A program made the translations under genes and the position numbers. DNA of 64,000 nt from Tachypleus tridentatus (taxonomy: Eukaryota > Arthropoda > Merostomata > Xiphosura > Limulidae), in contig NC_134834.1 in NCBI RefSeq assembly GCF_004210375.1, positions 142,137,009 through 142,201,008 of the forward strand, given 5' to 3'. Each line of letters starts with the position of its first letter. The stretch's first letter is position 1. Shown here in pieces: positions 13,728-48,150 of this stretch. Under the pieces are notes generated by a model. The model saw only the letters and a program-made list of their open reading frames with translations. It was not told where the DNA came from and did not search any database.

Positions 13728-13915
13728 TTATACATAGTGGATCCATGTTGGGCACAGATCTTCTAACTCAATGTCAGTTAATATTAGTCCAAAAAATTTC
13801 TCGCTTGAGGAACTATTTGTTGCTGAACCACGACATGTTGGAGGTATGAAATTTGCAGGTTTCTTTGGAACGTAGAGAATCCAGGAGACATTGCACTCAC
13901 AAGCGACATCATTAC
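13728..13915 (-). CDS. LRR gene 1, exon 4 (C-terminal cysteine cap)
   Basis: 188 nt after acceptor TTTTTTCTAG. It encodes NDVACECNVSWILYVPKKP, a later Cys in PPTCRG and a final Cys in LEDLC, then PTWIHYV and stop. The tail beyond the last Cys differs from that of gene 2. Confidence 0.87.
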
Positions 13916-16145
13916 CTAGAAAAAAAATGTTTTATTTGAAATTAACCAAACATTTCGAGACATTTAAAACGTAACAGAACACTGAGCTTTAAAATAATGT
14001 TGATGTATGTTATCTAAACATAAAACTACACAAATAATTGTTTACACTGTATCCGTGCAACGAGGAGATCGAATCCCAAATTTTAATTTCAAAGGCCCTG
14101 AAGCTTAATTATGAACTCTTATATATCTACGGTTATTAGGCAATATTAATTATGTATTTAAACCATTGAAGGAGTGAAGACAAATATGATTACGAAAAGG
14201 GAATGACTTTAAAATGACGATGCACGAACAAATTTAAATTACATAAAACACTTTAGTGAAATATTATAAAATAATTGATTGAAATATCTTGTTATAAAAT
14301 ATTTTATAAACTTTAGTGAAACATCTTGTTATAAAACACTAGTAAAATATCTTATTATAAAACACTTGAATGAAATATTTTATTATGAAACACTTTAGTA
14401 AAATATCTTATTATAAAATACTTGAGTGAAGTATTATAAAACATTTTAGCGAAATAGCTTGCTCTGTATTTAAATAGAAACAGTTTTATGATTATTTAAG
14501 GTAGTTATATTTGAGACAGATATGGCCTCACAGATATTTTAATATATACAGGTTAGATTAAATATCATTCAGGCTACTTAAAGTTCAGATAAAAGTCACA
14601 ATGGTTGAAATACATTGTCTTTGCACAAGTTAAATTTACAATTATTTACGATACTTACAGTTTACGTAAAGGTGAGTCAGTTGATTCCATACTGGTTGAA
14701 ATACATTTTTGTCTATCGTGGTTAGCTTGTTTCCTTGTAGGTAGACTTCACGAAGAGCTGGCATTCTTTCAAACATATGCAGTTCGAGTTCCACCAATTC
14801 GTTATCTCTGTAAACCATTCAACAATAAGAAATGTCTGTCTACAACGTGTTATTTCTGTAGAGTATTTAACAACATTAAATATCTTTATTTATGGCTTAT
14901 CTCTGTAGAACATTTAATAGCAGGTAATGTCCTTATCTACAGCTTGTTATCTCTGTAGAACATTCAACAAGTGATGTCTCTATCTACAGCTTGTATCTGT
15001 AGAACATTGAACAAGTAGTGTATTTATCTATATATCATTAACTCTATAATAACAAGTAATATTGTATGCACATATTATCTCTAAGAAAACAGATAATGTT
15101 TCTAAGTACATATTGTTATCCCCATAATAACAGGTAGTAATTTTATTTATATATTAGTATCCCTATAATAACTGGTAATGTTTTTATCAATAGGTTTTCT
15201 TAAAACATGTAATGACAGTTATTGTCATAAATTATTATATTTTTTTAGATTAATTTTTGAAATTCTTCACAAGTTTAAACGTTACCAAAGAGAAATAATT
15301 TTATAAATTGTACCGATACAAAAGAACTAAACAAAAAATATGTTTTAAAATGAAGTTATTTTTCTTTTTATGTTGTGTTTCGTTTTGCAGTATTTTTAAG
15401 GAAAATGTTTTCTTGAATCGGTAGCTATTCAAATGTCTAGAAAAAAAAATTACCTTAAGTTGATTATCCTTAGTTTACTTGCATCCGAGGGAAATGTGTT
15501 TCTTTCTATACGTTTGAAACCAACGCCACCTAGGTTAATAATTTCAAGTTTTGATAAATCTGACAACAGGTGAGTAATAGAAATTTCATCTACCTTGATA
15601 GCGCCTGATTTGCCAGTACAAGTAAAGCTCTTGATGTTAGGTATTCCTATATAATTTATGTTGCTGTCCAACAAACACATACTCCCTTCTATGGTTAGAG
15701 TTTGAAATAGAGAAAACTGTTGGTTTAATTGCTGAATTTCTGTAGCTTCTACCTTACCAACAGAAGATGTTACAACTGACAGTTCAGTTAGTGTCTTCTC
15801 TAAGCCCTCGAAGTCCTTCATCAAGTTTAAAGTTTCAATCGAAAATGATTTCAGCTCGATAGCCTTTATAGTTAGCCCCATGAAGAAATAACGACCAAAA
15901 GTAAATTTTTCTTCTGTTTTAGACATTGTGAGTTCAAGGCGACTGATACTGTATCCTCGAAAAGCCCACACAGGAATGTCTCCAAGTGTCTTGATTTTGC
16001 ACGATATGACAATTCCAGTTGTGCATGTACATTGTGGGTAAAGGTTTTCTTTAGGTGGACATCCTGATGAGGGATCAAATACTTGAAAAGTCAGCAATGT
16101 TGCAATAACTTTAGAATATATCGATACCTTGTGTCTGTAAAACAT
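13728..16145 (-). CDS. LRR gene 1: secreted leucine-rich-repeat protein, oplophorus-luciferin monooxygenase non-catalytic subunit-like
   Basis: Spliced minus-strand gene with coding exons 16,134-15,454, 14,807-14,659 and 13,915-13,728. All junctions are GT-AG: acceptors TTTTACAG, GGTTTACAG and TTTTTTCTAG, donors GTAATT and GTAAGT. Phases are 2 and 1. The exons join into about 338 residues plus the start. A hydrophobic N-terminus suggests secretion. A cysteine cap follows (C-x9-C-x-C-x7-C, after SSG), then a diverged LRR body (TLTIEGSMCLL, KLEIINLGG, KLRIINLRDNELVELEL, MPALREVYLQGNKL) and a C-terminal cap (CECNVSWILY...C...DLC) ending at TAA 13,728-13,730. An ATG at 16,143-16,145 is in frame but lies across the acceptor, so the true start may be in an unseen upstream exon. 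The family name reflects the cap-LRR-cap pattern; the ligand is unknown and luciferase activity should not be assumed. Confidence 0.85.
14241..14465. repeat. Minisatellite in gene 1 intron 3, about 33 bp unit
   Basis: Six or seven units built on AAATATCTTATTATAAAACA with an ACTTTAGTG linker. It fills about a third of the 743 bp intron between exons 3 and 4. Confidence 0.8.
14659..14807 (-). CDS. LRR gene 1, exon 3 (two LRRs)
   Basis: 149 nt, the same length as exon 3 of gene 2. It encodes DNELVELELHMFERMPALRE through WNQLTHLYVN, classic LRR spacing. The donor after AACT is GTAAGTAT. The plus-strand frame at 14,605-14,958 is its antisense shadow. Confidence 0.9.
14796..15200. repeat. Minisatellite carrying copies of the exon 3 splice acceptor (gene 1 intron 2)
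   Basis: Units start near 14,801, 14,849, 14,896, 14,946 and 14,991, then continue with decayed units to about 15,200 (step 45-50 bp). The first unit includes the genuine exon 3 boundary. Read on the minus strand, the others carry TTCTACAGAGATAA or close variants, that is, a 3' splice site followed by the first exon bases. The repeat therefore grew from sequence overlapping the exon edge. Confidence 0.8.
15454..16134 (-). CDS. LRR gene 1, exon 2 (N-cap and most LRRs)
   Basis: 681 nt. It enters after ATGTTTTACAG in phase 2 and leaves at AACTTAAG followed by GTAATT, phase 2. It encodes signal-like residues, the N-terminal cysteine cap and LRRs ending in RIINLR. The matching exon of gene 2 is 666 nt with the same phases and the same INLR ending. 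Confidence 0.88.
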
Positions 16146-16649
16146 TGTAAAACAAAGTCACTTTAAAAACATATTAAAGCTGAAACAAATTCCAAGAGAG
16201 AAATATCTAATTTCCATTGGTCTAAAACACTGTTGAGAACGAATATACTCAATGGATGATTTGTTTCAGTAATACTAAAACAAAAAAGAAATGGATTCAG
16301 CTTATCTTTTAAATTTGCATCTAAAAATTATACTTTAATAACTGTCTTTATTCCTTTGGGCAGTGCGAATCAATTTGAATTTTTTATTTTATTTTAGTAT
16401 CTATATAGTGATAAGTATTTTGGTAGTGTGAGAACTCACACTATTGATCTAACTTTTTCGTAAATAAGCAAAACCTCAAAACCGATTTCATGAAATAATA
16501 TAAAGCTGGTTGATTTTAGTAAACAAAGGGACTTGATAATAGAAAAATTAATTGGGGGGAAATAAAACTTGTTCTATATAAAAAAATATCATATTAGTAA
16601 CATTAACTACACGAAAACCTAATGTATTTCTTGAATTATTATAAGATAT
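16146..16649. other. 5' flank or intron 1 of LRR gene 1
   Basis: AT-rich with no confident exon 1. The upstream intron, if any, has an unknown length. Confidence 0.4.
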
Positions 16650-30978: not shown

Positions 30979-31148
30979 CTAAAGAAACACAGCCCACCAC
31001 CACCAGCTGCAAACATCATCAATGTCAACATCTTTAAGTGATACTCCTTTAAGGTTATTTGGAGAGGCACAGGTGGGATAAAACAGGTTTGCAGGTTTCT
31101 TGCTTACGATCAGCCAGCCAATACTACAGTCGCAATAGACTGGGTTAT
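30979..31148 (-). CDS. LRR gene 2, exon 4 (C-terminal cysteine cap)
   Basis: 170 nt after acceptor TTACTTCTAG. It encodes NPVYCDCSIGWLIVSKKPAN, a Cys in YPTCAS and a final Cys in DDVC, then SWWWWAVFL and TAG. The WWWW comes from four TGG codons in a row. Confidence 0.88.
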
Positions 31149-34100
31149 CTAGAAGTAAAGTGAATAGAAACATTGTCAGTACACTTTAAAAGAAGCAAAA
31201 TAAGTCAAAGTATAGGATTAACTTTAAAAACTCAGTGATCAAAGTAGTTGACACTTTCTTGTTACTTTTATTTTAGATCAGTTAACTTTGATACGATCAC
31301 TTCACTAAACATGCTTTATTCTCCAGAACCTTTCATTATACTACAGGTATTAAAACTCTTAAGCTTGCTTTATTTTTCAATCACACTATCTGCTCGTTGT
31401 CATAGCCGACGGAGCATTTTGCTCAATACAGAACTTATGAAGTTTACCATAACAGTTGTGAAATATATATATATTTACCACCCCTTCATAAAACCGCACT
31501 TGTAACACAATCCTTACGTAAATACTTTCCCATATGAATTACTGTTTTTAACAAATGGCGTATACAAATACTGCCCCATAGCAACTGCTGTTTCTAACAA
31601 ATGATTTTTACAAATACTGACCTAAAGCAACTGCTGTTTCTAACAAATGATTTATATAAATACTGACCCATTGCAACTGCTGTTTCTAACAAATGATGGC
31701 CCGGCATGGCCAAGCGCGTTAAGGCGTACGACTCGTAATCTGAGGGTCGTGGGTTCGCATCCGCGTCGCGCCAAACATGTTCGCCCTCCCAGCCATGGGG
31801 GTGTTATAATGTGACGGTCAATCCCACTATTCGTTGGTAAAAGAGTAGCCCAAGAGTTGGCGGTGGGTGGTAATGACTAGCTGCCTTCCCTCTAGTCTTA
31901 CACTGCTAAATTAGGGACGGCTAGCACAGATAGCCCTCGAGTAGTTTTGTGCGAAATTCCAAAACAAACAAATCTAACAAATGATTTATACAAATACTGA
32001 CCCATAGCAACTGCTGTTTCTAACAAATGACATATAATTACTGTCCCATAGTAACTGCTGTTTCAAACAAATGACATATAAATACTATCCCATAACAACT
32101 GTTATTTCTAAAAAATGGCTTATACAAGTACTGTCCCATAGCAAATGCTGTTTCTAACAAATTACTTATATAAATATATTATCACATCATCATAACAACT
32201 GCTGCTCTATTAAAAGGCTTATAGAAATACTGTCCTGTTACAGTTCCTGTTGTAACAAAAGGTTTGTAAAAATGTGATTATTGTATTTCGGCTATTCTTA
32301 GGAGTTATTCTGAATGAAACACATCGTAAGTAATAGATAAGGAGAACATGCTACCTGAATATAGTTATTCACTTGTTATGAGGTGAACGCTTTTCATCTA
32401 AACTTCTGAAGCGTAATTACAATAATTATACAGTCTTCTTATTGAAGGCATACCGAAATCATGTATATGCTTGAGAAAAAATTTAAAATTTTACTTTGAA
32501 TTAATATCACAGTTTGTACTATTAAGGCTAGTCTTATGATAAATAGGGTCATCTTTTGAAGAACGACATAACGCGAAATTTCAATAAAACAGGTATTTGT
32601 GTTGAATTTTGAAATATATTTATCAAAGAAAAGTGAAATTGATCTTATCTTAAGGTTTTCGAACGCTGTTTGATGACCTAACTCTAATACGATGAACTAT
32701 AATGCATGAAATATCATAAAACCACAATATGTTGAAAATGATATTTTAAACTGTCTTCAACACTGATGAGCAACCGTGTGATGGCGATGCTTAAAAATAC
32801 AAAAAATATATTTATAATAGTTGAAGTACAAAGGTGATGCCCACCATTAAGATAAATATGAGTCAGTTGATACCACACTGGCTTGAATGTGTCTCTGAGT
32901 AATAAACGAAACATGTTTCCTTGCAAATAGAGTTCACGAAGTGCTGGCATGTTTGTGAAAATCAAATCATCCAGGAAATGTAGATCATTATCCCTGTAAG
33001 AGTAAAATAATGTTAAGAAAGGACAAATATGATAAAGTATAACACAGTAATTTCAATCGAATAAGTCAGTTAATTTTAAAAATAACAATTAAATATCTTC
33101 AAGTAAGTACTAATAGAAAATATCATATGTGAGATGTGAAGAAGTAATACAATGGAGAAGTAATGTGATCAGAACCAGAGGAAATACCTGAAATACTATT
33201 GAAAAAAATAGTTAATACCCTTCTTTCTCTGTATAAATATTTCATCCAACTAATTCTAGTTAAAAGCTTAACTTTAACGCCACCTATAAATCTTGCCCTT
33301 ACCATCACGAGTCCCAAACGTTCTTGGAAGTTCAAATTGGTTTATCCAATAAAAGTATTATGAAGACGAGCCAATGCTAGGAATCAAAACGTCTTTAAAA
33401 TCAAATATCGATATTCCAAAAGTTGCTGTTATTTTATTTTTTAAGATTAAACGTTAATAGAATGTAATTAAAAGCCTATTTTAAAATACAAATTATCATG
33501 GTCATCTGTTAGCCTCTTGAGAGCTTAAAGGTAAAACTTAAGGTTTATAATGCTGAAGCACGAGGCGCTGTCTCACTGTGGACAAAATGCGAATAGCTAG
33601 TAGTGTTTACCCTGAAACAAACATTACATAATAATAATCAAATTTCATTTTAATGCTGTGTGAAGATATTATTTTATTAAGGTCGAATTCAGAAGTTACT
33701 AGTGACATGAAAGCATAAAAACAACCCGTCCTACGATAAAAAACAATCATATAATTGTTTCTTTAGTTAAAAAACCAAACCAGTTAATATTTGAAAATTA
33801 TGATAAATAAGCCTCATCTATAATATATCGATTTTTAGCTGCTGTAATAAATATCTTTAAGATATAAATTATCAAACTTTAATTTCTTAAAAGTTAAAAA
33901 CAAGTATATGTGCTAAAGCCCTTTTCTCAGACATCGATTAATTTATAATTAGACTTTTGTAAATACTTGATTTTATATTTAAACACAACTTTTATTGTCA
34001 GCTGTTTTCGAAAGCCCATTTGTGTAAATCTACAAAGTTCATTAATGATAACTATTGTGGTGAAGAATTTCAAATGTTTCGTACTATCATATTCACAGTT

Positions 34101-35206
34101 TATTTTAAAGCAAAAAAAATATTCAATCTGTAGTCTATATCACAGAATAAAATAGCATTTGTTTTATGATTTGCAGTTATTATAAATACCAGAATTTAAG
34201 ATATCATTTTAAAAGTTGCAACAGTGCAATTTTCGGCTCTTTTAAAAATAAAGAAATCAAAATGTAAAAACTGTTCATATTTTAAATGCTTCATTTAATT
34301 GGAAAACGTACACTTTCTACCTTCATAAAATATGATGTTGTTATTATAATCTAGGAATTTACATCTTAAAAAGCGCGTTTTTTTTTAAGTTTAGGGCAGT
34401 TAACACTGAACAAAAATGAGTTGATTATAAAAATTCAAATTAAAGTCTGAAAATTTCCTAATCAACATAGTTAAAGCGTTAAAGGTTTATTTGATTATGA
34501 GTTTTAGTATTTGAATTTACTGCAGAATCTGTTCACTAACCTTAAGTTGATTATTTTCAGCTTCTGTGCCGTTATTGGAAAAATGTTTCTCATCACGCTT
34601 TTAACTTTAGTACCACCTAGGTTAACTTCCTCCAGTTTTGAAAATGCTGCTAACAAAAACTCAGAAACATGGACTGAATTTTTTCCTTCTGCGTTGCCTG
34701 TACAAATGAATTTTTTTAGGTTTGGTATTCCGATAAAGTTTATATTCTGCGTAAGTAAACAAATACTCCCTTCTATGCGTAAGGTGTGAAAATAGAGAAA
34801 TTCGTCGCCATGGGAAATATCGTCTGATGTCATAATTTCTTCTACGTATGATTCTTCCAATTCCAGTGTTTGCAGCGACTTAGATAAACCTCGGAAATCT
34901 TCCATCAAGTTCAAGGAAGATATTTGTAGGTTTTTCAATTGAATATGGTGGATTGACAATCCTTGGAAGACATCTGCTGGAAATTTGATCATTCTGCCGT
35001 CTTCGAGGATCAGCCGACTGTAGGTGTGGCCTTTGAAGTAAGAGAATGGGATTTTGTTTGCACTCGTAAAACCTCTACAAGTTAGAACCGGTCCATAAAC
35101 AGAACATCTACAAGGAAGAATGTTTTCTGGGGGTGGACAACTTGTTGCAGCTTTTTGTAACTGAAGTGTAACAACAATGGAGAAAAACAGCAGCAGGTAG
35201 CTAGAG
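30979..35206 (-). CDS. LRR gene 2: secreted leucine-rich-repeat protein, paralogue of gene 1
   Basis: Spliced minus-strand gene with exons 35,206-34,541, 32,993-32,845 and 31,148-30,979. Junctions are GT-AG: acceptors TTTTTTACAG, TCTTACAG and TTACTTCTAG, donors GTTAGT and GTGGGC. Phases match gene 1 (2, then 1). The exons give about 327 residues without the start, which must lie in an upstream exon because no in-frame ATG precedes the N-cap. Order: hydrophobic YLLLFFSIVVTLQL, N-terminal cap (C-x8-C-x-C-x8-C, CPPPENILPCRC), LRRs (TLRIEGSICLL, KLEEVNLGG, KLKIINLRDNDLHFL, MPALRELYLQGNMF) and C-cap NPVYCDCSIGWLI...C...VC. It ends with an unusual run of four tryptophans and TAG at 30,979-30,981. 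By eye, about half the residues are shared with gene 1. Function beyond a secreted LRR protein is unknown. Confidence 0.85.
31510..32265. repeat. Minisatellite in gene 2 intron 3, 46 bp unit, split by a SINE
   Basis: About ten units built on CATAGCAACTGCTGTTTCTA with an ACAAATGATTTATACAAATA linker, diverging toward 32,265. A family A SINE at 31,698-31,972 interrupts it. Confidence 0.85.
31698..31972 (+). mobile_element. SINE family A, full length, with target-site duplication
   Basis: The cleanest copy. Head GGCCCGGCATGGCCAAGCGC, B box GGTTCGCATCC, body and tail all match. TCTAACAAATGAT flanks it at 31,685-31,697 and 31,973-31,985 (13 bp). The duplicated site is part of the 46 bp minisatellite. 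It is antisense to gene 2 within its last intron. Confidence 0.95.
32845..32993 (-). CDS. LRR gene 2, exon 3 (two LRRs)
   Basis: 149 nt, identical in length and phase to exon 3 of gene 1. It encodes DNDLHFLDDLIFTNMPALRE through WYQLTHIYLN. Donor after AATG is GTGGGC, a weaker match than the gene 1 donor. Confidence 0.9.
32994..34540 (-). other. Intron 2 of LRR gene 2
   Basis: 1,547 bp with GT-AG ends. It holds a diverged family B SINE at about 33,503-33,625 and otherwise AT-rich sequence. Gene 1's equivalent intron is 646 bp. Confidence 0.75.
33503..33625 (+). mobile_element. SINE family B, strongly diverged
   Basis: Family B order is visible: AGCTTAAAGGTAAAACTTAA, TTTATAATGCTGAA, CACTGTGGACAAAATGCG, AATAGC and an ACCCTGAAACAAACA end. 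Confidence 0.55.
34541..35206 (-). CDS. LRR gene 2, exon 2 (signal-like segment, N-cap, LRRs)
   Basis: 666 nt after the acceptor TTTTTTACAG, ending AACTTAAG before GTTAGT. The frame is open from 35,260 downward, but the first ATG (34,990-34,992) lies after the cysteine cap, so it cannot be the start. The plus-strand frame at 34,511-34,789 is its shadow. Confidence 0.88.
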
Positions 35207-35847
35207 CTGTAAAAAACAAAAACAACGTGTCTTAAAGAAAGCTGAACATTTTCAACATGTTAACTTGAGTTTACCAGACAGTTCTTTAGGTTAACAATAA
35301 CTTTTTATAGCTAAACGCGAAGAGCAACTTCAATACATGTTACATAAAACATATTAAACTTTTATTGTAAAATTATATAAAATGATCAACAACGCAGCCT
35401 ATGCGATGTTTACATAATACATATTTACCAAATTCAAATTCCCTAAACTTTGTGGATGTAATATATGCATTATGTGTATTTTTAGTTTTAAATAATTAAT
35501 ATCAAACATTTTTCCACAGATAAAAATTTAGAACAAATTACAAATTCTCAAGTAAAATGAATTAAAATAAGTTGTTAGCTTAATAGGTGTAACACCATTA
35601 CGATGTACTGTGTACTATCACCTGTTGAGTTATTATTTACGAGTAATATGTGCATACATAAGTGAAAGAGACACATTCACATACACAAAAGACTAGAAAC
35701 TGCTCCAAAGTCAGGGACTGTTTGAATATTTATCCTCGCTCCCCGATTCATACATGTATCCATTTACGGTCAAATCTCATTATATTAAAAAACATTTATT
35801 GATAAAAGTTTCACTTGCAGAGGTACGTATCGCTACTTAGTAATTAT
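35207..35847 (-). other. Upstream flank of gene 2 exon 2, start exon not found
   Basis: The stretch between exon 2 and the giant array. A minus-strand TATA-like CTATAAAAAG lies at 35,301-35,310, but the first ATG below it is out of frame and soon stopped, and no small exon with the needed phase-2 donor was found. The missing first exon may be beyond the array. Confidence 0.4.
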
Positions 35848-36718
35848 TTTGGCTATTTTTTGGTCTAAATGTTTACTGTCTAACATTAGATTGATGTTAT
35901 TATCTGTATGTTTACTGTATAACTTTACGATAATGCTATTGTCTGAATGTTTACTATCTAACATTAAGTAAATGTTGTTATCCGAACGTTTACTGTTTAA
36001 CATTAGGTCGGTATTACTGTCTCAATGTTTACACTCTAATATTAGGGTCATGCTATTGTCTGACTGTTTAGTGTCTAACATTCGGTTGATGTTATTGTCC
36101 GAATTTTTAATATTTAACATTAAGTTGGTATTATTGTCCGAATGTTTACAGCCTATCATCAAGTTGATGTTATTTTCCAAATGCTTAATGTCTAGCTTTG
36201 GGTTGATGTTATTGTGAGAATGTTTATTATCTAACATTATGTTGATGCTATTGTCTGAAAATTTACTGTCTAACATTAAGTAGGTATCATTGTCCAAATG
36301 TTTACTGTTTAACATTAAGTTGACCTTACTGTGTGAATGTTTACTTCTTAGTTTCGGTTAATATTAATGTGTGAATGTTTACTGTCTTCGTTTCGGTTGA
36401 TGATAATGTGTGAATGTTTACTATCTGACATTAATTTGATGTTATTGTCCGAATATTTACTGTCTAATTTTGGGTTGGTGTTACTCTGTGAATGTTTACT
36501 GTCTAGCTTTCGGTTGATATTACTGTATCAATGTTTGCTTTCTAACATTAGGTTGATGTTACTGTCCGAATGTTTACAATCTAATATTGGTATGATGTTA
36601 TGGTCCGAATGTTTACTGTCTAACATTAGTTTGATATTATTCTGAGAATTTTACTGTCTACCTTTATGTTGATGTTATTATCTCAATGTTTATTGTATAA
36701 CATTTTGTTGTTGAAGTT

Positions 36719-37185
36719 ATTCTGAGAGTTTTATTGTCTACCTTTATGTTGGTTTTATTGTTTCAATGTTTATCGTATAACATTTTGTTGATGCTTCATT
36801 CTAAGAGTTTACTTTCTATTCTATAGTTGATGTTATTATTTGAATGTGTTCAGTCTATAATTAAGTTGGTATTATTGTCCGCATATTTGTTGCCTAACTT
36901 TAGGTTGATGTTATTGTTCGAAAGTCCACTTTCTAACATTATTTTCTTTGTATTGCCCGAATGTTTACTGTCTAACATTAAGTCGATGTTATTGTCCGAA
37001 TAGTTACTACCTATATTACTTTGATGTTATTGTCCCAATATTTTCTGTGTAATATTAGTTTGATATTATTGTCTGATTGTTCACTGTCTGCTATTAACTT
37101 GACGTTATCTTGCGAATGTTTACTGTTTAACATTATGTTGATGTAATTGTGAGAATGTTTATTGTTTAACATTTTGTTTATGCTA
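36719..37185. repeat. Internal array duplication, left copy
   Basis: 36,719-37,010 matches 40,990-41,281 with a constant 4,271 bp offset and no indel. It includes rare variants such as ATTCTGAGAGTTTTATTGTC, TCGAAAGTCCAC and CTTTGTATTGCCCGAATG. Similarity resumes at 37,089 with a 4,230 bp offset, so one unit's worth was lost or gained. Confidence 0.9.
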
Positions 37186-37590
37186 TTGTCTGAATGTTTA
37201 CTGTCTAACATTAAGCTGGTATTATGGTCCAAATGTTTGCTTGCGCACATTAAGTTGACGTTATTGTCCGAGTGCTTTGTGTCAAACCTTGGGATAATTT
37301 TATAGTCCAAAATGTTTACTGTTTAACTATGGGTTAATGTTGTTGTCTAAATGTTTACTGTCTAACATTACATTGATGTTATTATGCGAATATTTACTGT
37401 CTAACATTAGGTTGATGTAATTGTGAGAATGTTTATTGTCTGTCATTTTGTTTATATTATTTTCTGAATGTTTATTGTCTATCATTTGGTTGATGCTATT
37501 ATCAGAATGTTTACAGTCTAACATTAAGTTTTTATTATTTTTCGAATGTTTAGCGTCTAATAATAAATTGATGTTATTGTCTGGATGTTT

Positions 37591-37824
37591 ACTGTCTAAC
37601 TTTAGTTTGAGGTTATTATCTGAATGCTTATTGTCTAGCTTTGGGTTGATGTTATTGTCCGAATGTTTACTGTCTAACTTTAGTTTGAGGTTATTATCTG
37701 AATGCTTAATGTCTAGTTTTTGGTTGATATTATTGTTCGAATGTTTACTGTCTAACTTTAGTTTGAAGTTATTATCTGAATGCTTAATGTCTAGTTTTTG
37801 GTTGATATTATTATTCGAATGTTT
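37591..37824. repeat. Higher-order repeat, 78 bp (2 x 39), 3 copies
   Basis: ACTGTCTAACTTTAGTTTGA starts at 37,591, 37,669 and 37,747, each followed by TATCTGAATGCTTA and a second unit type. The pairs are more alike than adjacent single units. Confidence 0.9.
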
Positions 37825-40800
37825 ACTGTCTAACTTTGGGTTGATGTTATTGTCCGAATGGTTACTGTTTAAAACTTAGTTGGTTTTATAGTCCAAACGT
37901 TTACTGCCTAAAGTTAAGTTGACGCTATTGTCCGAATATTTAGTATCTAACTTTGAGTCAAATCATTGTCTGAATGTTGATGTTATTGTTCGAATGTTTA
38001 CTGTCTAACATCAGGTAGATGCTGTTGTTCGATTGTTTACTGTGTAAGCCTGGGGTGATGTTAGTGTGGGAATGTTTACCGTTTAACATTAAGTTGGTAT
38101 CATTGTCCAAATATTTACTGTTTAACTTCAGTTTGATATTATTTTCCGAATGTTTAAGATCTAACTTTAAGTTAGTATTATTATCCAAATGTTTACTGTA
38201 TTATGTTAACTTGATGTTATTGTTAGAATGCTTACTCTCTAACTGTGGGTTTATGTTATTATCCGAATGATTACTGTCTAACATTGAGTTAACATCATTG
38301 TCCAAATGATTTCTGTCTAACATTGAGTTAACATTATTGTCCAAATGATTTCTGTCTAACATTAGGTGGATGTTATTGTCCGAGTGCTTACTGTGTAACA
38401 CTCTATTAATATGATTGTCTCACATTAGTTTAGTATTATTCTCTGAAAATTACTGTCTAGTTATTCATATTAATATCACAATGTTTACTGGCTAACATTA
38501 GTTTGATGTTCCTTTCCGAATGTTTATTGTTTGACATTAGGGTAATGTTATTGTCCGAATACTTACTGTTTAACTTTGGGTTTATATTAGTCTGTGAATG
38601 TTTACTATTTAACATTAAGTTGGTATATTTCTCCTAATGTTGAATATCTATCTTCACAATGACGCTATTGTCTGAATCCTTAATGTATGGCTTTGGATTG
38701 ATGTTATTGTCCGAATGTTTATTCTGTAACTTTGGATTGATGTTATTTTCTGAATTTTTACAGCCTATTATTAGTTTGATGTTATTGTCTGAATGTTTAC
38801 TGTCTAACATTATGTTTATTCTATTATCCAAATATTTGCTGTTTGACTTTAGTTTGATATTATTATCCAAATGTTTACTGTCTATCGTTATGTTAATGTT
38901 ATTGTTCTAATGTTTACGTGCTACCATTTGGTTGATATTATTGTTCGTTTGTTTACAGTCTTACATTAGTTTGATGTTATTGTCCGAATTTTGTAGTTTA
39001 ACATTATTTTGGTAGTTGTGTCTGAATGTTTCTAGTCTAATATTAAGTTGATGTTATTGTCTGAATGTTAACTGTCTAACATTAATTTGGTATTATTGTC
39101 CATATGTTTTTGTCTAGCTTTGGATTGATGTTATTGTCTAAATATTTGCTTTTTAAGTTACATTGACATTATTATCCGAATGTTTACTATGCAGCTTTGT
39201 GTTGATGTTATTGTCTGAATTTTTACGGTTTAACATTAGTTTGAAGTTTTTGTCCGAATGTTTACTGTCTAACATTGTGTTTATATTACTGTACATATAT
39301 TTGCTGTTTGATATTATTATCCGAAAGTTTACTGTCTTACATTATGTTGATGATGTTGGTTATTTTCTGTTATTGGTCCAATATTTGCTCTCCCCATTTG
39401 GTTGATATTATCGTCCGATTGTTTACAGTTTAACATGAGTTTCATGTTCTTGTCCGAATATTTGCTGTTTTACTTTTTTTCTTGTTATTGTCCTAATGTT
39501 TACTCTTTAACATTAGTTTGATGTTATTGTACTAATTTTTACTGTCTAACATTTGGTTCATTTTATCGTCCGAATGTTTACAGTCTAACACTAGGTTGAT
39601 GTTTTTGTCCAGAAATTACTTTCGAACATCAGGTTAATCTTATTGTCCAAAAGTTTGCTGTTCAATAATGTGTTAGTAATATTGTTCGAATGTTTAAAGT
39701 CTAACATTAGTTTCATTGTTTTCTCTTAATGTTTACTGTTTTACTTTTTCTGTTATTCTGTTAACGTTTACTCTCTACCATTCCGTTGATATTACGTCCA
39801 ATTGTTTACAGTCTAACATTAGTTTGATGTTCTTGTCCGAATATTTCCTGTTTTACTTTATCTTCCTGTAATTTTCATAACGTATACTATCTAATATTAG
39901 TTTGATGTTCTTGTCCGAATTTTTACTGTCTAATATTAGGTTGATGTTATTGTCCAAATGTTTATAGTAATAACATTAGTTTGTTATTACTGTTTCAATG
40001 TTTTCATTATAATAGTATGTTGATGTTATTATCCGAATGTTTACTGTCTGACATTACGCTGATGTTGTCGTGCGAATTTTTACTGCTTAACATTGCGTTA
40101 TTATTGTTGTCTGAATGTTTACTGTCTAGCTTTGGGTTGATGTTATTGTGCGAAGTTTTACTGTGTACCTTAGGGTTCATATTATCGTCCAAATGTTTAC
40201 AGACTAACGTTAGTTTTATGTTACTGTCCGAATGTTTACTATCTAACATTAGTTTGATATTATTTTCCGAATATTTAATGTCTTACTTTGAGTCCATATT
40301 ATTGTCTAAATGATTACTGTCTAACGTTAGGTAGATGTTATTTTCCGAATGTTTACTGTCTACCTTGATGTTGTTGTATTATCTGAATGTTTAATGTCTA
40401 AAATTACTCTGATGTTATTGTTCGAACTTTTACTGTTTAAAATTATGTTTTTTTTTATTATCCAAATATCTACTCTTTAACATTAGTTTTCCGAATGTTT
40501 ACTGTTTAACATCAGGTTGATGTTATTGTCCGACTGTTTATTCTCTAACATAATGTTAATGTAATTGTCCAAATGTGTGCTATCTAAAATTTGGTCGATA
40601 TTATCGTTTGAATGTTTATAGTACAAGATTAGTTTGATATTTTTGTCCGAATGCTTACTGTTTTTTTGCATTTTGCTATGATTGAACTAATGTTCACTGT
40701 CTAACATTAGTTTGATGTTATTTTCCGAATGTTTACAGTTTAACATTAGGTTGGTATTATTGTTCGAATGTTTTACCATCCTTAACTTCATGTTATTGTT

Positions 40801-40989
40801 CGAATCCATAATGTCTAGCTTTGAGTTGATGTTATTGTGAGAATGTTTACTGTCTTAGTTTGGGTTTATGTTAATGTGTGAAAGTTCACTGTCTGATATT
40901 AATTTCATGTTATTGATCGAATGTTTACTCTCTAATATTCGTTTGATATCATTGACCGAATCTTTGCTATCTAACATTAGGTTTATGTT

Positions 40990-41415
40990 ATTCTGAGAGT
41001 TTTATTGTCTACCTATATGTTGGTTTTATTGTTTCAATGTTTATCGTATAACATTTTGTTGATGCTTCATTCTGAGAGTTTACTTTCTATTCTATAGTTG
41101 ATGTTATTATCTGAATGTCTACAGTCTATAATTAAGTTGGTATTATTGTCCGAATGTTTATTGTCTAACATTAGGTTGATGTTATTGTTCGAAAGTCCAC
41201 TTTCTAACATTATTTTCTTTGTATTGCCCGAATGTTTACTGTGTAACATTAAGTCGATGTTATTGTCCGAATAGTTACTGCCTAACTTAGGGTTGACGTT
41301 ATTGTCTGAATGTTTAACTGCTATTAACTTGATGTTATCTTTCGAATGTTTACTGTTTAACATTATGTTGATGTAATTGGGAGAATGTTTTTGTTTAACA
41401 TTTTGTTTATGTCAT
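40990..41415. repeat. Internal array duplication, right copy
   Basis: Partner of 36,719-37,185. The shared rare variants, in the same order over about ten units, cannot come from the consensus and show a segmental copy event inside the array. Confidence 0.9.
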
Positions 41416-43870
41416 TGTCCGAATGTTTACTGTCTAACATTAGGTTGATGCTCTTTCCGAATGTTTGCTGCTTTACTTTATTTTCAAATTATTCTATTAA
41501 TATTTACTGTGCAACACTAGTTCAATGTTATTCTTCGAATGTTTGCTGTCTAACATAAGGTTAATGTTGTTGTCTAAATGTTTACTATCTAACAATACAT
41601 TGATGTTATTGCCCGAATGTTTATTGTCTAACAATAGTTTGATGTTATTGTCCAAATGTTTTCTGTCTAACATTAATTTAATATTATTGTTCGAATGCTT
41701 AATGTCTAGCTTTGGGTTGATGTTATGATCTGAATGTTTATTGTTTGTAATTTTGTTTATTCTTTTTTCTGAATGTTTACTGTCTAACATTTGGTTGATG
41801 TTATTATCAAAATATTTAAGTCTAACATTTAGCTGTTATTATTTTTCGAATGTTTACTCTCTAACATTAGTTTGATGTCATTGTCCGAATGTCTACTGTC
41901 TAACGTTATGTTAATGTCATTCTCCTAATGTTTACTGTTTAACATTTGGTTGATATTATCGTCAGAATGTTTATTTTCAAACACTCGGTTGATGTTCTTG
42001 TCCGAAATTTTGCTGTCCAATATTGTGTTAGTAATATCGCCCGAATGTTTACTCTCTAAAATTATATTGATGCTCTTGTTCGAATGTTTACTCTTTTACT
42101 TTATTTTCTGTTGTTGTTCTAATGTTTACTGTCTACCCTTTGGTTTATATTATCGTGCGATTGCTTACAGTCTAACATTAGTTTGATGTTCTGGTCCGAA
42201 ATATTTGCTTTTTTACTTTATTTTCCTGTTACTGTCCTAATGTTTTCTTTTTAACATTAGTTACATGTTATTGTCCGAACGTTTACTTTCCAGTATTAGT
42301 TTGGGATTATTTTCTGAAAATTTACTGTCTATCTTTTGGTTGATATAATCGTCCCAATATTGAGAGGCTTTTATTAATTTGATATTTTTGTCCGAATGTT
42401 TACAAACTAACATTAGTTTGATGTTATTTTACGAATATTTGCCGTCTAACATTAAATAGAGGTTATTCTCCGAATATTTACTGTCTAACATTAAGTTGAC
42501 GTTATTGTCCTAATGCTTACTCTCTAACTGTTGGTTGATGTTATTGTCCGAATGATTACTGTCTAACTCTGAGTTCACATCATTGTCTGAATAATTACTG
42601 TCTAAAATTAGGTAAATGTTTTTGTCCGAATACTTACCGAGTAACATTTTACAAGTATTATTGTCTGAATGTTTACGGTACAATATTGGGTTGATGTTAC
42701 CGTGTGAATATTTACTGTCTTAGTTTAGGTTGATGTTAATGTGTGAACGTTTGCTGTTTAACATTTAGTTGGTATTATTGTTCGAATGTTTACTCCCTAT
42801 ATTCAAGTTGATGTTATTCTCCGAATTTTTTTGATCTAACATTAGTTTGATGTTATTGTCCGAATTTTTACTGTCTAACATTATGTTGATGTACATGTAA
42901 CTGTGTGAATGTTTACTCTCTGGGGTTTGGTTGACATTAATGTGTGAATGTTTATTATCTAAGGTTGATTTAGTATTAATATGTGAATACTTACTGTCTA
43001 ACATGAGTTTGATGTTATACTTGTCCGAATGTTTAATATCTAGCATTATGTTTATTTTATGTTTATGTTACTGTGAGAATGTTTGCTGTCTAACATTTTG
43101 TTGTTGCTATTGTCTGAATGTTTACTCCCTATTATTTTTTATGTTATTTTCTGATTGGTTATTGTCTAACCTTAAGTTAGTATTAATGTAGAAATGTTTA
43201 CTGTAGAATATTAAGTTGATGTCATTGTCCAAATGTTTACCATTAAATTTTTTGTTGATTTTTTTTTGTCCTAATGTTTGCTTTCTAACATTAAGTTGAT
43301 GTTATTGTGTGAATGTTTCTAATGTAACATTACTTTAATGTTATTGTCCGAATGTTTACTCTCTAACATTAGTTTGGTATTACTGTCTGAAAATTTACTC
43401 TCTAAGTTTTGGTTGATATTAACGCTCGAATGTCTACCGGCTAACATTGGTTTAATGTTCTTTTCCGAATATTTTCTGTCTAACATGAGATTGATGTTAT
43501 TGTCCGAATGTTTACAGGGTAATATTGGATTAGTATTATTTTCTAGTGTTTACTGTTTAACATTAGTTTTTTGTTATTTTCCAAATTTTTACTGTCTAAC
43601 ATTGTGTTAGTAGTATTGTCTTAATGTTTACTGTATAACTTTGGTTTTTTTTTGTTATTGTGTGAATGTTTTATGTTATTATCCTAATGTTTACTGTCTA
43701 ATATTTGGTTGATATTATCTTCCGAATATTTACATGCTAACATTAGTATGATGTTCTTTTCTAAATGTTTACTCTCTAACGCTAGGTTGGTGTTATTGTC
43801 GGGATGTTTACAGGGTAACATTGGATTGGTATTAGTGTCTGAATGTTTACTGTGTAACATTAGGTTATTG

Positions 43871-44028
43871 TTATTGTCCGAATGTTTATTGTCTTACGTT
43901 GTGTTAGTATTATTGTCTGTATTTTTTGCTGTCTAACTTGTTGTTGATGTTATTGTCCGAATGTTTATTGTCTTACATTGTGTTAGTATTATTGTCTGTA
44001 TTTTTTGCTGTCTAACTTGTTGTTGATG
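43871..44028. repeat. Recent tandem duplication at array end, 79 bp, 2 copies
   Basis: 43,871-43,949 and 43,950-44,028 differ at one base seen (CTTACGTT against CTTACATT). The 79 bp unit is two 39 bp units plus one base. This is the youngest change seen in the array and lies at its distal edge. Confidence 0.9.
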
Positions 44029-44068
44029 TTATTGTCCGAATGTTTACTGTGTAATTTTTAGGTTGGTA

Positions 44069-45017
44069 TGTTTTGTTTTATTTTTATTATAGTATCTACT
44101 GATAGTTTGCGGCTTAAATAGAAACTCCTGTAAAACTTTCTACTAACAAAGTAAAGTATCGTAGTTTTTTAATGTCAATTTCATTACTATCTTGGTTATA
44201 AATATTTTGAAATAAAAAAGACTTCATTGAAATCTTATAATGCTTTGAAACAGAGGAAAATAAATTATTACCTCTTCATGTCCATGATTCACCTCGTGAG
44301 AGTGTTGCGAATGGTAAGTACCCCTTTTTATGATTCTCGTGAGCTTTATAACCCCTTCAGCATTTTAATATTGTAATGACGCATGAAAACATAATGAGGA
44401 CCTGTGTTATCAGTAGAATATTAAATATTGATGTTATGTGATCTTGTCTAACTTGCTTCGTTGTAATGTTTATCAAATCCCCACGTGAACTCTGTCACAT
44501 GTTAGGACCTTTTTTTTGTATATTTAAGATACTAATTCCATTCTGAAAGTTATCTTAATTCTATCTGCCATGTGAAATAGAACAGATAGTACTTTTCTAA
44601 TTTTTATCAACTATTATTTGTTACATCCTCCGCAGTATAACTGGTATTTAATAATATAAATCCAAATACCCCCTCCTCTCAGTTTGAGTTTTGATGTACA
44701 ATTTACTTTTAAATTGTTTTACGAATAAAAATTGATCCAGAACGAGTTTCCGATTTATTTTATTATGTACTTGAAGTATTACAATTTCAAATAGTCGGAA
44801 ATGTTAATTTTAATTTAGATGTTATTCAAATGCTAATATGTATCAAATTTACGATATTTGCCGACAAGATTGATACATACAATTTTTTTCTTAATCCAAA
44901 AATATTTCATTATAAATACAATTTATAATGGTTACTACATATAATGTTTTATATACAAGAATTTTACAAACTTATAAACAATACTGGGTTATCTATCTGG
45001 TTTAGAAGAGAATTTTA
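44069..45017. other. Non-coding stretch, nothing recognised
   Basis: Unique-looking AT-rich DNA beyond the array. No exon recognised. Confidence 0.4.
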
Positions 45018-45288
45018 TCATGGTCAGGTGGTTAGGGCGCTCGACTCGTACTCTGAGGGGCGCGGGTTCGAATTCCTGTCACACCAAACATGCTCGCCCT
45101 TTCAGCCATGGAGGGTTATAATGTGAATGGCAGTCCCACTATTTCTTAGTAAAGAGTCGCCCAAGAATTGGTTTGGAGAGTGATGACTTGCTGCTTTCAC
45201 TCCTATTTTACACTACTAAATTAAGGACGGCTAGTGCAGATAACCCTTGTGCAGTTTTGCGCGAAATTAAAAAAACAAACAAAGAAAC
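45018..45288 (+). mobile_element. SINE family A, near full length
   Basis: CATGGTCAGGTGGTTAGGGC head, B box GGTTCGAATTCC at 45,065, body and TTTTGCGCGAAATT tail with AAACAAACAAAG. Confidence 0.92.
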
Positions 45289-48150
45289 AACTAGCTAACT
45301 TGAAGCACTCATACGTTTTTCACCGATGACAATATCTAATGTTCTCGTAGGAATACTAACGTCCAAAGTTAATTCACAGAATTAAACTTTTTGTAATGTC
45401 CAAAATCTATAAAAGTTCTTGGTCTGTTATCTGTAGTTTTCCGATTAATAAGCGTTTGTCACAATTATAGGTTCAAAAGCTTATAGTATAATGACTATAG
45501 CGACCCAACAATATTATTAAATTGTGTATTAGCGCGTCGATTTATAAATTTTTCAGGTGAGTTTCTCGTAAGTTTAGTTGGTAACAATGTAAATATATAG
45601 AGTTGATCCTTACACTCGAGAATCTTGTAGACGTTTAGAGAATAGACATGATTTGGCAACACCATGGGTTACATGCATTTCTAAATATATATTAAACTGA
45701 AACAAACATAAACATTAAAATAAATGTGTACTAGTTTATCCAATAGAGATTCTACAATTGTCTTTACTTCGGGATGGAAGATCTTCAGAAGTTACGAACA
45801 CAAAAATAAACAATTGGTAACATCTAAAACATATAGAATTTTATTTTATATACTAAAGACATTACCATGTATTAACACATAAAAAGAAGTCAAAATCACC
45901 ATACAAATATCGTCAATAAATACCCATGTCATGCCTTTTGATTATTATTTTGTAATATTCTCACACTTCTGCTAAATAATTAGTAAAAACTGTATAATTA
46001 CTCTACGTTTCACAAACCTGTGTATACTGGTGAATCAACAATGATTAAATATGTCTGAGATGAGTTAAATAAATAATTTAGAACTATGACAAACCATGAT
46101 GGTGTCAAAAAAAAGATCTAAAGATAAAACTATTGGGAAATTTCCAGATAATTAATTTTTTTTAAAATGTCCAGTTCTTAACATTAAAAGTGTCATACAA
46201 AATGTGCTATCTTTTTATTATTGTTCCATATAAGTTTTTACCATACAGAGGGCTTCGATTTGTCGTAACATTTGCAAGCATTAATCATAATTTGGAAGAT
46301 GAATACAGAATTACTAACTGGGTATGACACATTTTATTTTGCAGTTAGCATGTTATAATTTGGTAAGTGAATCTAATATTACTTTAACAACATACATGGC
46401 ATGAGAAAAACGATATGGTATGACTTAGAATACAAAATATGCAAAACGAATTTACAGAAAAAGTGTAGTATATGAAGACGTTACAGCGCGAAACGTTTTC
46501 AGCCTCTTCCCTAAAAGAATATGATATCTCAGAATTTTGAAATTTTCTTTCCGTTGATCTTCTGTGACTTCCCATTAGTTTGCCACAATATAAGTGGTGG
46601 ATATTGTCAATGTCGTTGAAATAAAAGAAATATACTTCTGTACTAATATGATATCTGTTATGGACCCACCATTACCAGAATGTATTCACGCTTCTTGCAA
46701 CAGAACAAAAGCAACACCTGCTTGATGAACTCATCAGGAATGAAAATATACTGGAAACAACACCACTTCAGATTGTGTTAACTTACATCACAATACAATT
46801 AATTATACTTTGTATCCCCACTTTTTCTAGTTTATCCAATTTTATGAAAGGTACCAGCTTGGGGTGACATCACGTTCAGGAAGAATGTATCTTCACACTC
46901 ATCCATTTGTGCCATTGAAAAAGGAGTTCGAAAACACTGGTCCTATGTGCCTTGTGAAAGGACTTGAGTAATTAATTTATAAAGTATACAAAAGCGCTAT
47001 TGATTGGTGCTGTATTGTGGTGGAAAGAGTTAATCTGAGATGTGTTTATGGAAACTTTGAATGTTAAAGTAATAAGTTATATGAGGATATAAGAGGCTGT
47101 ACAAGAAGGCCTAAAGACTCGGAATTGTTTTCTTCATAGTGTAGAACTAATGAATTGAGGAGAAGCCAATATTAACCTCATGCACTGATGCAGAAGAAGA
47201 GAAGCAATTATTCGTTCAGTCATGAATGGCTCAACATCCAGTACAAGATTCATTCGGCAGAAACGTTATTTACATGTCCAGGATATCAGAGGATGTCAGG
47301 AAAGAGTTAGGACTAAGAAGAGAACGTATTCTAAACATTTATTAACCATATCTCTTGAAATTCCTTTTCTGTAAATAAGTAACAACAATCAAAATGGTAA
47401 GTTACTTTTTGTATTAGTTGCACTATACAATGAAAGAGAAACAACAATATTATAATTTAATCTTCCACAAAATGTTTACAACCTTTAACAATGTCGTATG
47501 CCAGAATATCATAGGTTTCTTCTTTTTGTATTCGTGTTAGTTGTTTAAAATCCATTCTCAGTTATGAACATGAAACGGAATGACCAAAATCATTAAATCT
47601 ATCTTCTTTCAATATGTCTTTTTTTTGTGTCATCTTCCAAAATGGCATAAGGAAACCGATAGGGTATGATTTAAAATACGAAATAAGTGAAGAAAAGTTG
47701 TGCAGTTTCTTCAAATTACAAAATTTGCATATCTTGAGAATATTCCAGACAATTGAGACTGCCTGCAGAGACGTTGCTGATCAAGTTCGTGTATTCTCCA
47801 GATGAATAAATAAAGCTTGAAGATCAGGTTCGACTAATCAGAAAGAAGAACAACTAGTCTCCAGTAGCAGCAGACAAACAATATGAATATTAAGTTTCTT
47901 CAAACGTACAGCAAAAAGCATAGGAAACAAGACATACAAACCAAGGTGAGCTCAGATGAGGTAAGGTAAATAGAAGCTAGATTTATTTTTGTTTTCAGTT
48001 ACTTCATTTTATTCTGGGTTGTGTTTATGGGAATATTTTCTTACGTTTTTAAACACTGCTGTACAACATTGTAATAGTATATCCTGTATTAAAGTCCATA
48101 TTTTTAGCTTGTTTATTCCGTTGCTAAGTGTAAAACAACACAATACGCTA
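45289..48150. other. Non-coding stretch, nothing recognised
   Basis: No SINE or LRR exon. A short similarity exists between about 46,396-46,440 and 47,645-47,690 (CGATATGGTATGA / CGATAGGGTATGA, then AATAC(A/G)AAATA), perhaps an old dispersed or duplicated piece. The 63-residue frame at 47,614-47,805 covers the second piece and is not supported as a gene. Confidence 0.4.

What the first reader, a model, noticed from the sequence alone, without database searches (positions are those of the whole stretch)
35848..44068. 8.2 kb, ~210-copy 39-bp minisatellite next to a secreted LRR gene
Seen directly: one array of ~39 bp units begins 640 bp upstream of gene 2 exon 2. It is far larger than any other tandem repeat here and shows units of clearly different ages. 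Such an array can change promoter spacing, chromatin or intron length, and is likely to vary in length between individuals.
Basis: partly seen in the sequence, partly recalled or inferred. Interest (0 to 1): 0.72.

Follow-up and report, generated by a model that had tools for sequence, protein, structure and literature searches.

The report
Old decayed minisatellite in an intron
An 8.2 kb run of about 213 copies of a 39-base unit fills most of the inferred first intron of a horseshoe crab gene; it looks like an old repeat that stopped turning over long ago and has decayed since, and repeats of this size are not rare in this genome.

Summary
The array is real: 35848-44068 holds 213 head-to-tail 39-bp units, all one way round. 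The host is a horseshoe crab, most likely Tachypleus tridentatus (species inferred). The array makes up about 91% of the inferred 9.07 kb intron 1 of a minus-strand LRR gene with a signal-peptide-like start. The unit was found as an array nowhere else in the 2.17 Gb genome at the sensitivity used. Size is not remarkable: 2 of 20 sampled 10-kb stretches are covered for 8.8 and 9.9 kb by minisatellites. What stands out is decay: units differ 18.7% from their consensus, neighbours are no more alike than distant units, and the set is close to a star, whereas the two longest control arrays are 6.1% and 1.5% diverged and show neighbour structure. So the units are one age cohort with a few later duplications, and frequent recent length change looks unlikely. 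At a published rate of 1.37e-9 turnover stopped roughly 115-160 million years ago, near the Atlantic-Asian horseshoe crab split. Open-frame selection was not seen; a forkhead-like core shows only weak, inconsistent hints. Best reading: a relic that mainly lengthens an intron.

The parts
35848..44068 (+). 39-bp minisatellite, 213 units, consensus (GTCCGAATGTTTACTGTCTAACATTAGGTTGATGTTATT)n on the + strand
36722..37188 (+). units duplicated about 4.23-4.27 kb away (partner 40993-41417); paired units mostly 0.86-1.0 identical, with one poor unit in the chain (37032, 0.74); scattered further good pairs up to about 37580/41880
40993..41417 (+). partner of the block at 36722-37188
43876..44033 (+). 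youngest event seen: a two-unit (79-bp) duplication; unit identities 0.974 and 1.0
37579..37851 (+). two-unit (78-bp) duplications, unit identities 0.90-1.0
44272..44285 (-). inferred coding part of exon 1 (ATGGACATGAAGAG|GTAATA, phase 2); no transcript seen
   Evidence: sequence printed; inference
35207..44271 (-). inferred intron 1, 9,065 bp, of which the array is 8,221 bp
   Evidence: inference
34541..35206 (-). exon 2: signal-peptide core and first LRR region (splice ends inferred)
32717..33052 (-). open frame that contains an LRR exon (exon 3)
30982..31185 (-). open frame that contains a cysteine-rich exon like an LRR C-terminal cap (LRRCT match below its cut-off)

Best explanation
The array is a relic minisatellite in the first intron of a secreted LRR gene. 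A 39-bp stretch of this intron was amplified head to tail until the array held about 200 fairly uniform units (inferred). Turnover between units then nearly stopped, and the units decayed by independent point mutations and small indels, with only a few local duplications later (the star-like, distance-independent divergence is shown; the history is inferred from it). On a published neutral clock, turnover stopped about 115-160 million years ago (inferred; needs a normal mutation rate in the array). Its main present effect is to lengthen intron 1 from about 0.85 to 9.1 kb; no sequence-specific function is needed.
For: Single locus. Flat identity with lag and near star-like spread. The two longest control arrays of the same genome: 50-bp x159, 1.5% from consensus, lag-1 z 5.7; 25-bp x351, 6.1%, lag z from -6.7 to 3.5; this array 18.1%, lag-1 z 1.1. 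Substitutions 1519 of 8132 aligned bases, K_JC 0.215; 0.160 after leaving out six variable or linked columns picked by eye (22, 25, 26, 27, 31, 33) and the two CpG columns. On average G and C columns decayed most and T columns least, as AT-biased mutation would give. No in-frame selection: 29 stops in 1716 codons of the open minus frame (132 gapless units) vs 32.1 (sd 3.3) with columns shuffled. After duplication, differences fall on the best-kept block as often as elsewhere: 14 of 54 vs 13.8 expected.
Against: No insertion longer than 11 bp in 8.2 kb, and 0 dispersed-repeat blocks against 3.5 expected from the rest of the window, P 0.03 if blocks were independent: odd for an old neutral stretch. 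The block GAATGTTTAC is slightly better kept than base type predicts (permutation p 0.007, 0.026 and 0.047 for the best window of 10, 8 and 7 columns). Some columns are linked, so the units were not wholly uniform when turnover stopped, which pushes the age up. Controls are mixed: of 14 other arrays, 8 show no lag 1-5 with |z| of 3 or more, all of them with 8-40 units, and the spread ratio does not single out this array (1.03 here; 0.92-2.38 in controls, 1.13 and 1.33 in the two longest).
Confidence: 0.8

Rival explanations
1. A living VNTR: the array still gains and loses units often and differs in length between individuals, changing intron length.
For: A two-unit duplication at 43876-44033 with one mismatch in the aligned units and other two-unit duplications at 37579-37851; much younger long arrays exist in this genome.
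Against: Units about 29% apart pairwise; no neighbour effect at lags 1-20, while the two longest control arrays show one.
Confidence: 0.1
2. A regulatory array: the unit carries TGTTTAC, a forkhead-type core (motif recalled, not from a call), and the intron works as an enhancer or as a decoy that soaks up a forkhead factor.
For: 74 exact TGTTTAC in 8.2 kb and none reversed, against 25 on both strands in the other 55.8 kb. The block GAATGTTTAC is the best-kept 10-column window.
Against: The 7-mers best kept for their base make-up are AATGTTT and GAATGTT (1.58 and 1.57 times expectation), the core itself 1.24. Degenerate TRTTTRY is only about 3 times the flank density (123 in 8.2 kb vs 4.9 per kb on both strands). 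After duplication the core collects differences at the expected rate: 10 vs 9.7 of 54.
Confidence: 0.05
3. A 13-residue coding repeat: 39 is 3 x 13, and the minus frame NNINLMLDSKHSD is open for up to 182 codons.
For: Six minus-strand open frames of 100-182 codons in the array.
Against: The consensus has no stop in that frame, so open runs are expected; stops 29 vs 32.1 expected from shuffled columns. Only 12 of 79 indel runs are multiples of 3 (7 of 189 with linear gaps).
Confidence: 0.01
4. Array length or content is an assembly artefact.
For: Tandem arrays are often misassembled (general knowledge; also the theme of PMC6868369, seen only as a search listing).
Against: No N; 204 of 208 units distinct, so long reads could be placed in one way.
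Confidence: 0.03

Closest known systems
Minisatellites (10-100 bp units) in introns
   Same: Head-to-tail 39-bp units, kilobase array, single locus, in an inferred intron
   Different: About 18.7% from consensus with distance-independent divergence; hypervariable minisatellites are much more uniform (general knowledge)
Other long minisatellites of the same genome (L034 25 bp; L044 50 bp)
   Same: Similar span (8.8 and 9.9 kb seen; they run up to a sample edge)
   Different: They are 6.1% and 1.5% from consensus and show neighbour structure
Satellite DNA
   Same: Tandem repeat of a short unit
   Different: Not found as a multi-locus family: one array only

Membership tests
Minisatellite | Tandem units of about 10-100 bp in a kilobase-scale array | tested here: met
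Minisatellite | Restricted to one locus rather than a genome-wide family | tested here: met
   the tool warns that common words are skipped and counts are lower bounds
VNTR (length-polymorphic minisatellite) | Different lengths between individuals | not testable with these tools
   one assembly only; internal structure argues against frequent change
Satellite DNA | Long arrays of one unit at many loci or at centromeres | tested here: not met
   (many loci); centromere position was not tested
Coding tandem repeat | Frame kept open beyond what column composition gives | tested here: not met
Transcription-factor site array | Binding core kept by selection | tested here: inconclusive
   weak excess over all units, none after duplication

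The most novel reading that the evidence does not exclude
The array has stood unit by unit since before Atlantic and Asian horseshoe crabs parted, and it has stayed free of transposon insertions because the long first intron, or its bank of forkhead-like cores, is used; individual units should then be alignable as orthologues between Tachypleus and Limulus.
Probability: 0.07. Interest if true: 0.6.

Novelty: new member of a known kind. Interest (0 to 1): 0.22.

Why it matters
Minisatellites are usually thought of as short-lived. A 200-unit array that stopped turning over more than 100 million years ago would be a natural record of about 200 copies mutating side by side, useful for measuring neutral mutation in a slowly evolving lineage, and unit-level orthology with Limulus would be a direct test. 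As a regulatory or variable locus it has little support.

Tried and rejected
Coding repeat: rejected by stop counts and indel lengths. Genome-wide satellite: rejected. The one hit elsewhere with a single mismatch, C1:126309484, is a lone 28-base match without tandem neighbours (L048). Forkhead-site array: weak excess across units, none after duplication. Strand-asymmetric mutation: an apparent A-to-T and G-to-T excess comes largely from a few variable columns (judged by eye), so I dropped it. Exon 1 of the neighbouring LRR gene by pattern: no candidate printed. Rfam at gathering scores and ARAGORN found nothing in the window. PDB search with exon 2: only two weak hits, best E 0.018. Paralogue introns: only 5 kb upstream of one paralogue (L045) and the 1.5 kb flanks that came with the hits were held; L045 and L016 have small tandem repeats of other units, the longest 36 bp over 263 bp and 79 bp over 159 bp; longer introns and the other paralogues were not examined. 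Literature: 7 searches; I saw no report of this array in their listings and claim nothing wider. Of papers opened, PMC7210998, PMC6390705, PMC7815833 and PMC4066314 were seen as passages, and section 12 of the last was read.

Full report
Observation. TRF finds the 39-bp array at 35863-43646 and 43674-44067. A wraparound alignment over 35848-44068 gives 213 units with consensus GTCCGAATGTTTACTGTCTAACATTAGGTTGATGTTATT. Lag-39 self-match is 0.613 against 0.320 in shuffles. The units all read one way: the core TGTTTAC occurs 74 times and its reverse complement not once.

Host and setting. The genome has 2.17 Gb in 205 contigs. It carries coagulogen, a horseshoe crab clotting protein (recalled): 19 matches to the Pfam family, which rings in 0 of 14 control genomes. 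Two exons match PDB 1aoc: one in 48 of 51 residues, its last 46 without a difference (the three differences are at the start, perhaps beyond the exon), the other in 48 of 48. That 1aoc is from Tachypleus tridentatus is recalled; the species is an inference. The gene is on the minus strand. Exon 2 (34541-35206) follows a plausible acceptor, and an ATG-bearing segment with a donor of matching phase lies at 44272-44285. Joined, they start MDMKSSSYLLLFFSIVVTLQL, a signal-peptide-like start (no predictor was run). With later exons the composite scores LRR_8 at E 6e-11. The array is thus in an inferred 9,065-bp intron, 203 bp from exon 1 and 641 bp from exon 2. The other LRR gene of the window (exon 2 at 15453-16157, about 42-43% identical) has no TRF row in the 3.8 kb upstream of its exon 2.

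Is it special in the genome? The unit was found only here: 42 and 88 listed matches, all in the array or running up to 17 bp past its end; 74 of 92 core matches inside; 18 outside, single and scattered; 12 for the reversed control. These searches score only the best candidates. The left flank matches only itself; the right flank has other matches only from about 44700 on, a dispersed repeat (40 of 2347 candidates scored). Long minisatellites as such are ordinary: in 20 sampled 10-kb stretches (round-number positions on four contigs, not random draws), 29,156 of 200,000 bases lie in arrays of period 10 or more and at least 150 bp, and 2 of 20 are covered for 8.8 and 9.9 kb.

Age structure. Mean unit identity is 0.705-0.716 at lags 1-12; against 500 permutations of unit order, z in lags 1-20 runs from -2.9 to 2.5 (95% limit of the maximum 2.8). 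Over lags 1-179 only lag 110 passes the limit (z 3.9 vs 3.4), because of a block copied about 4.27 kb away. Pairwise spread is 0.072 against 0.069 (sd 0.002) with columns shuffled. The same tests were run on 8 of the 20 samples; 7 gave 14 arrays with 8 or more copies. The two longest show neighbour structure (50-bp: lag-1 z 5.7; 25-bp: z -6.7 to 3.5), as do two 46-47-bp arrays (lag-1 z 4.3 and 5.0) and two more at lag 2 (3.5 and 3.0); the other 8 show no |z| of 3 or more at lags 1-5. One of the 14, a poorly fitted row that overlaps another array, is 20% from its consensus; the rest are 0.7-13.3%. The spread ratio is 1.03 here and 0.92-2.38 in the controls, so it does not separate this array by itself; the lag test at comparable length does. 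I read this as one cohort that stopped turning over.

Clock. Substitutions are 1519 of 8132 (K_JC 0.215), or 0.160 without six variable or linked columns picked by eye and two CpG columns (this choice lowers K). The neutral rate is 1.37e-9 per site per year for the mangrove horseshoe crab, calibrated on a split 135 million years ago (PMC7210998, passages seen), giving about 157 and 117 million years. A second calibration, Ks mode 0.35 between T. tridentatus and L. polyphemus with a split 114-154 million years ago (PMC4066314, section 12 read), gives 104-189. These assume a normal rate and uniform units at the start. SINE-like copies of the window are 11.5% from their consensus on average (12 of 15 hits, those long enough; range 7-23%, two of 12 more diverged than the array), so most look younger than the array.

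A puzzle. The array has no insertion over 11 bp, and no alignment gap over 19 columns (loss of whole units would not show). Dispersed-repeat blocks, found against 241 kb of other loci, number 24 in the other 55.8 kb and 0 in the array (expected 3.5, P 0.03). Blocks are not independent and some may be older than the array, so I call this a hint only.

Function. The minus frame NNINLMLDSKHSD is open in the consensus, and stops are as frequent as shuffled columns give. The + strand holds 74 TGTTTAC. The window GAATGTTTAC is somewhat better kept (p 0.007 at 10 columns, 0.026 at 8, 0.047 at 7), but in 21 unit pairs chosen for high identity (some share a unit), 14 of 54 differences fall there, as expected. 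Columns 3-4 keep CG in 86 of 210 units, with TG in 48 and CA in 19, as CpG decay would give. I therefore prefer a relic that lengthens an intron.

Noticed in passing
31520-32176: A small 44-46-bp minisatellite in a later intron of the same gene is split by a SINE-like copy at 31705-31972: dispersed repeats do land in minisatellites here.
   Followed up: partly
45019-45290: A SINE-like repeat with tRNA-like boxes (recalled, by eye) just upstream of the gene; 15 matches in the window counting itself, 12 of them long. ARAGORN called no tRNA.
   Followed up: partly
13731-16157: A second, paralogous secreted LRR gene on the minus strand with small tandem repeats between its exons (14243-14434, 14879-15187).
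   Followed up: partly
L015, L016: Two distant paralogues on other contigs also have an acceptor-like site just upstream of the signal-peptide exon, with the ATG after it (by eye).
   Followed up: no
L048:980-1007: A lone 28-base match (93%) to the unit on contig C1, without tandem neighbours; chance or a stray copy.
   Followed up: partly
L034:1-8788 and L044:1-10000: Two other long minisatellites (25-bp and 50-bp units) in sampled stretches, both far less diverged than this array.
   Followed up: partly
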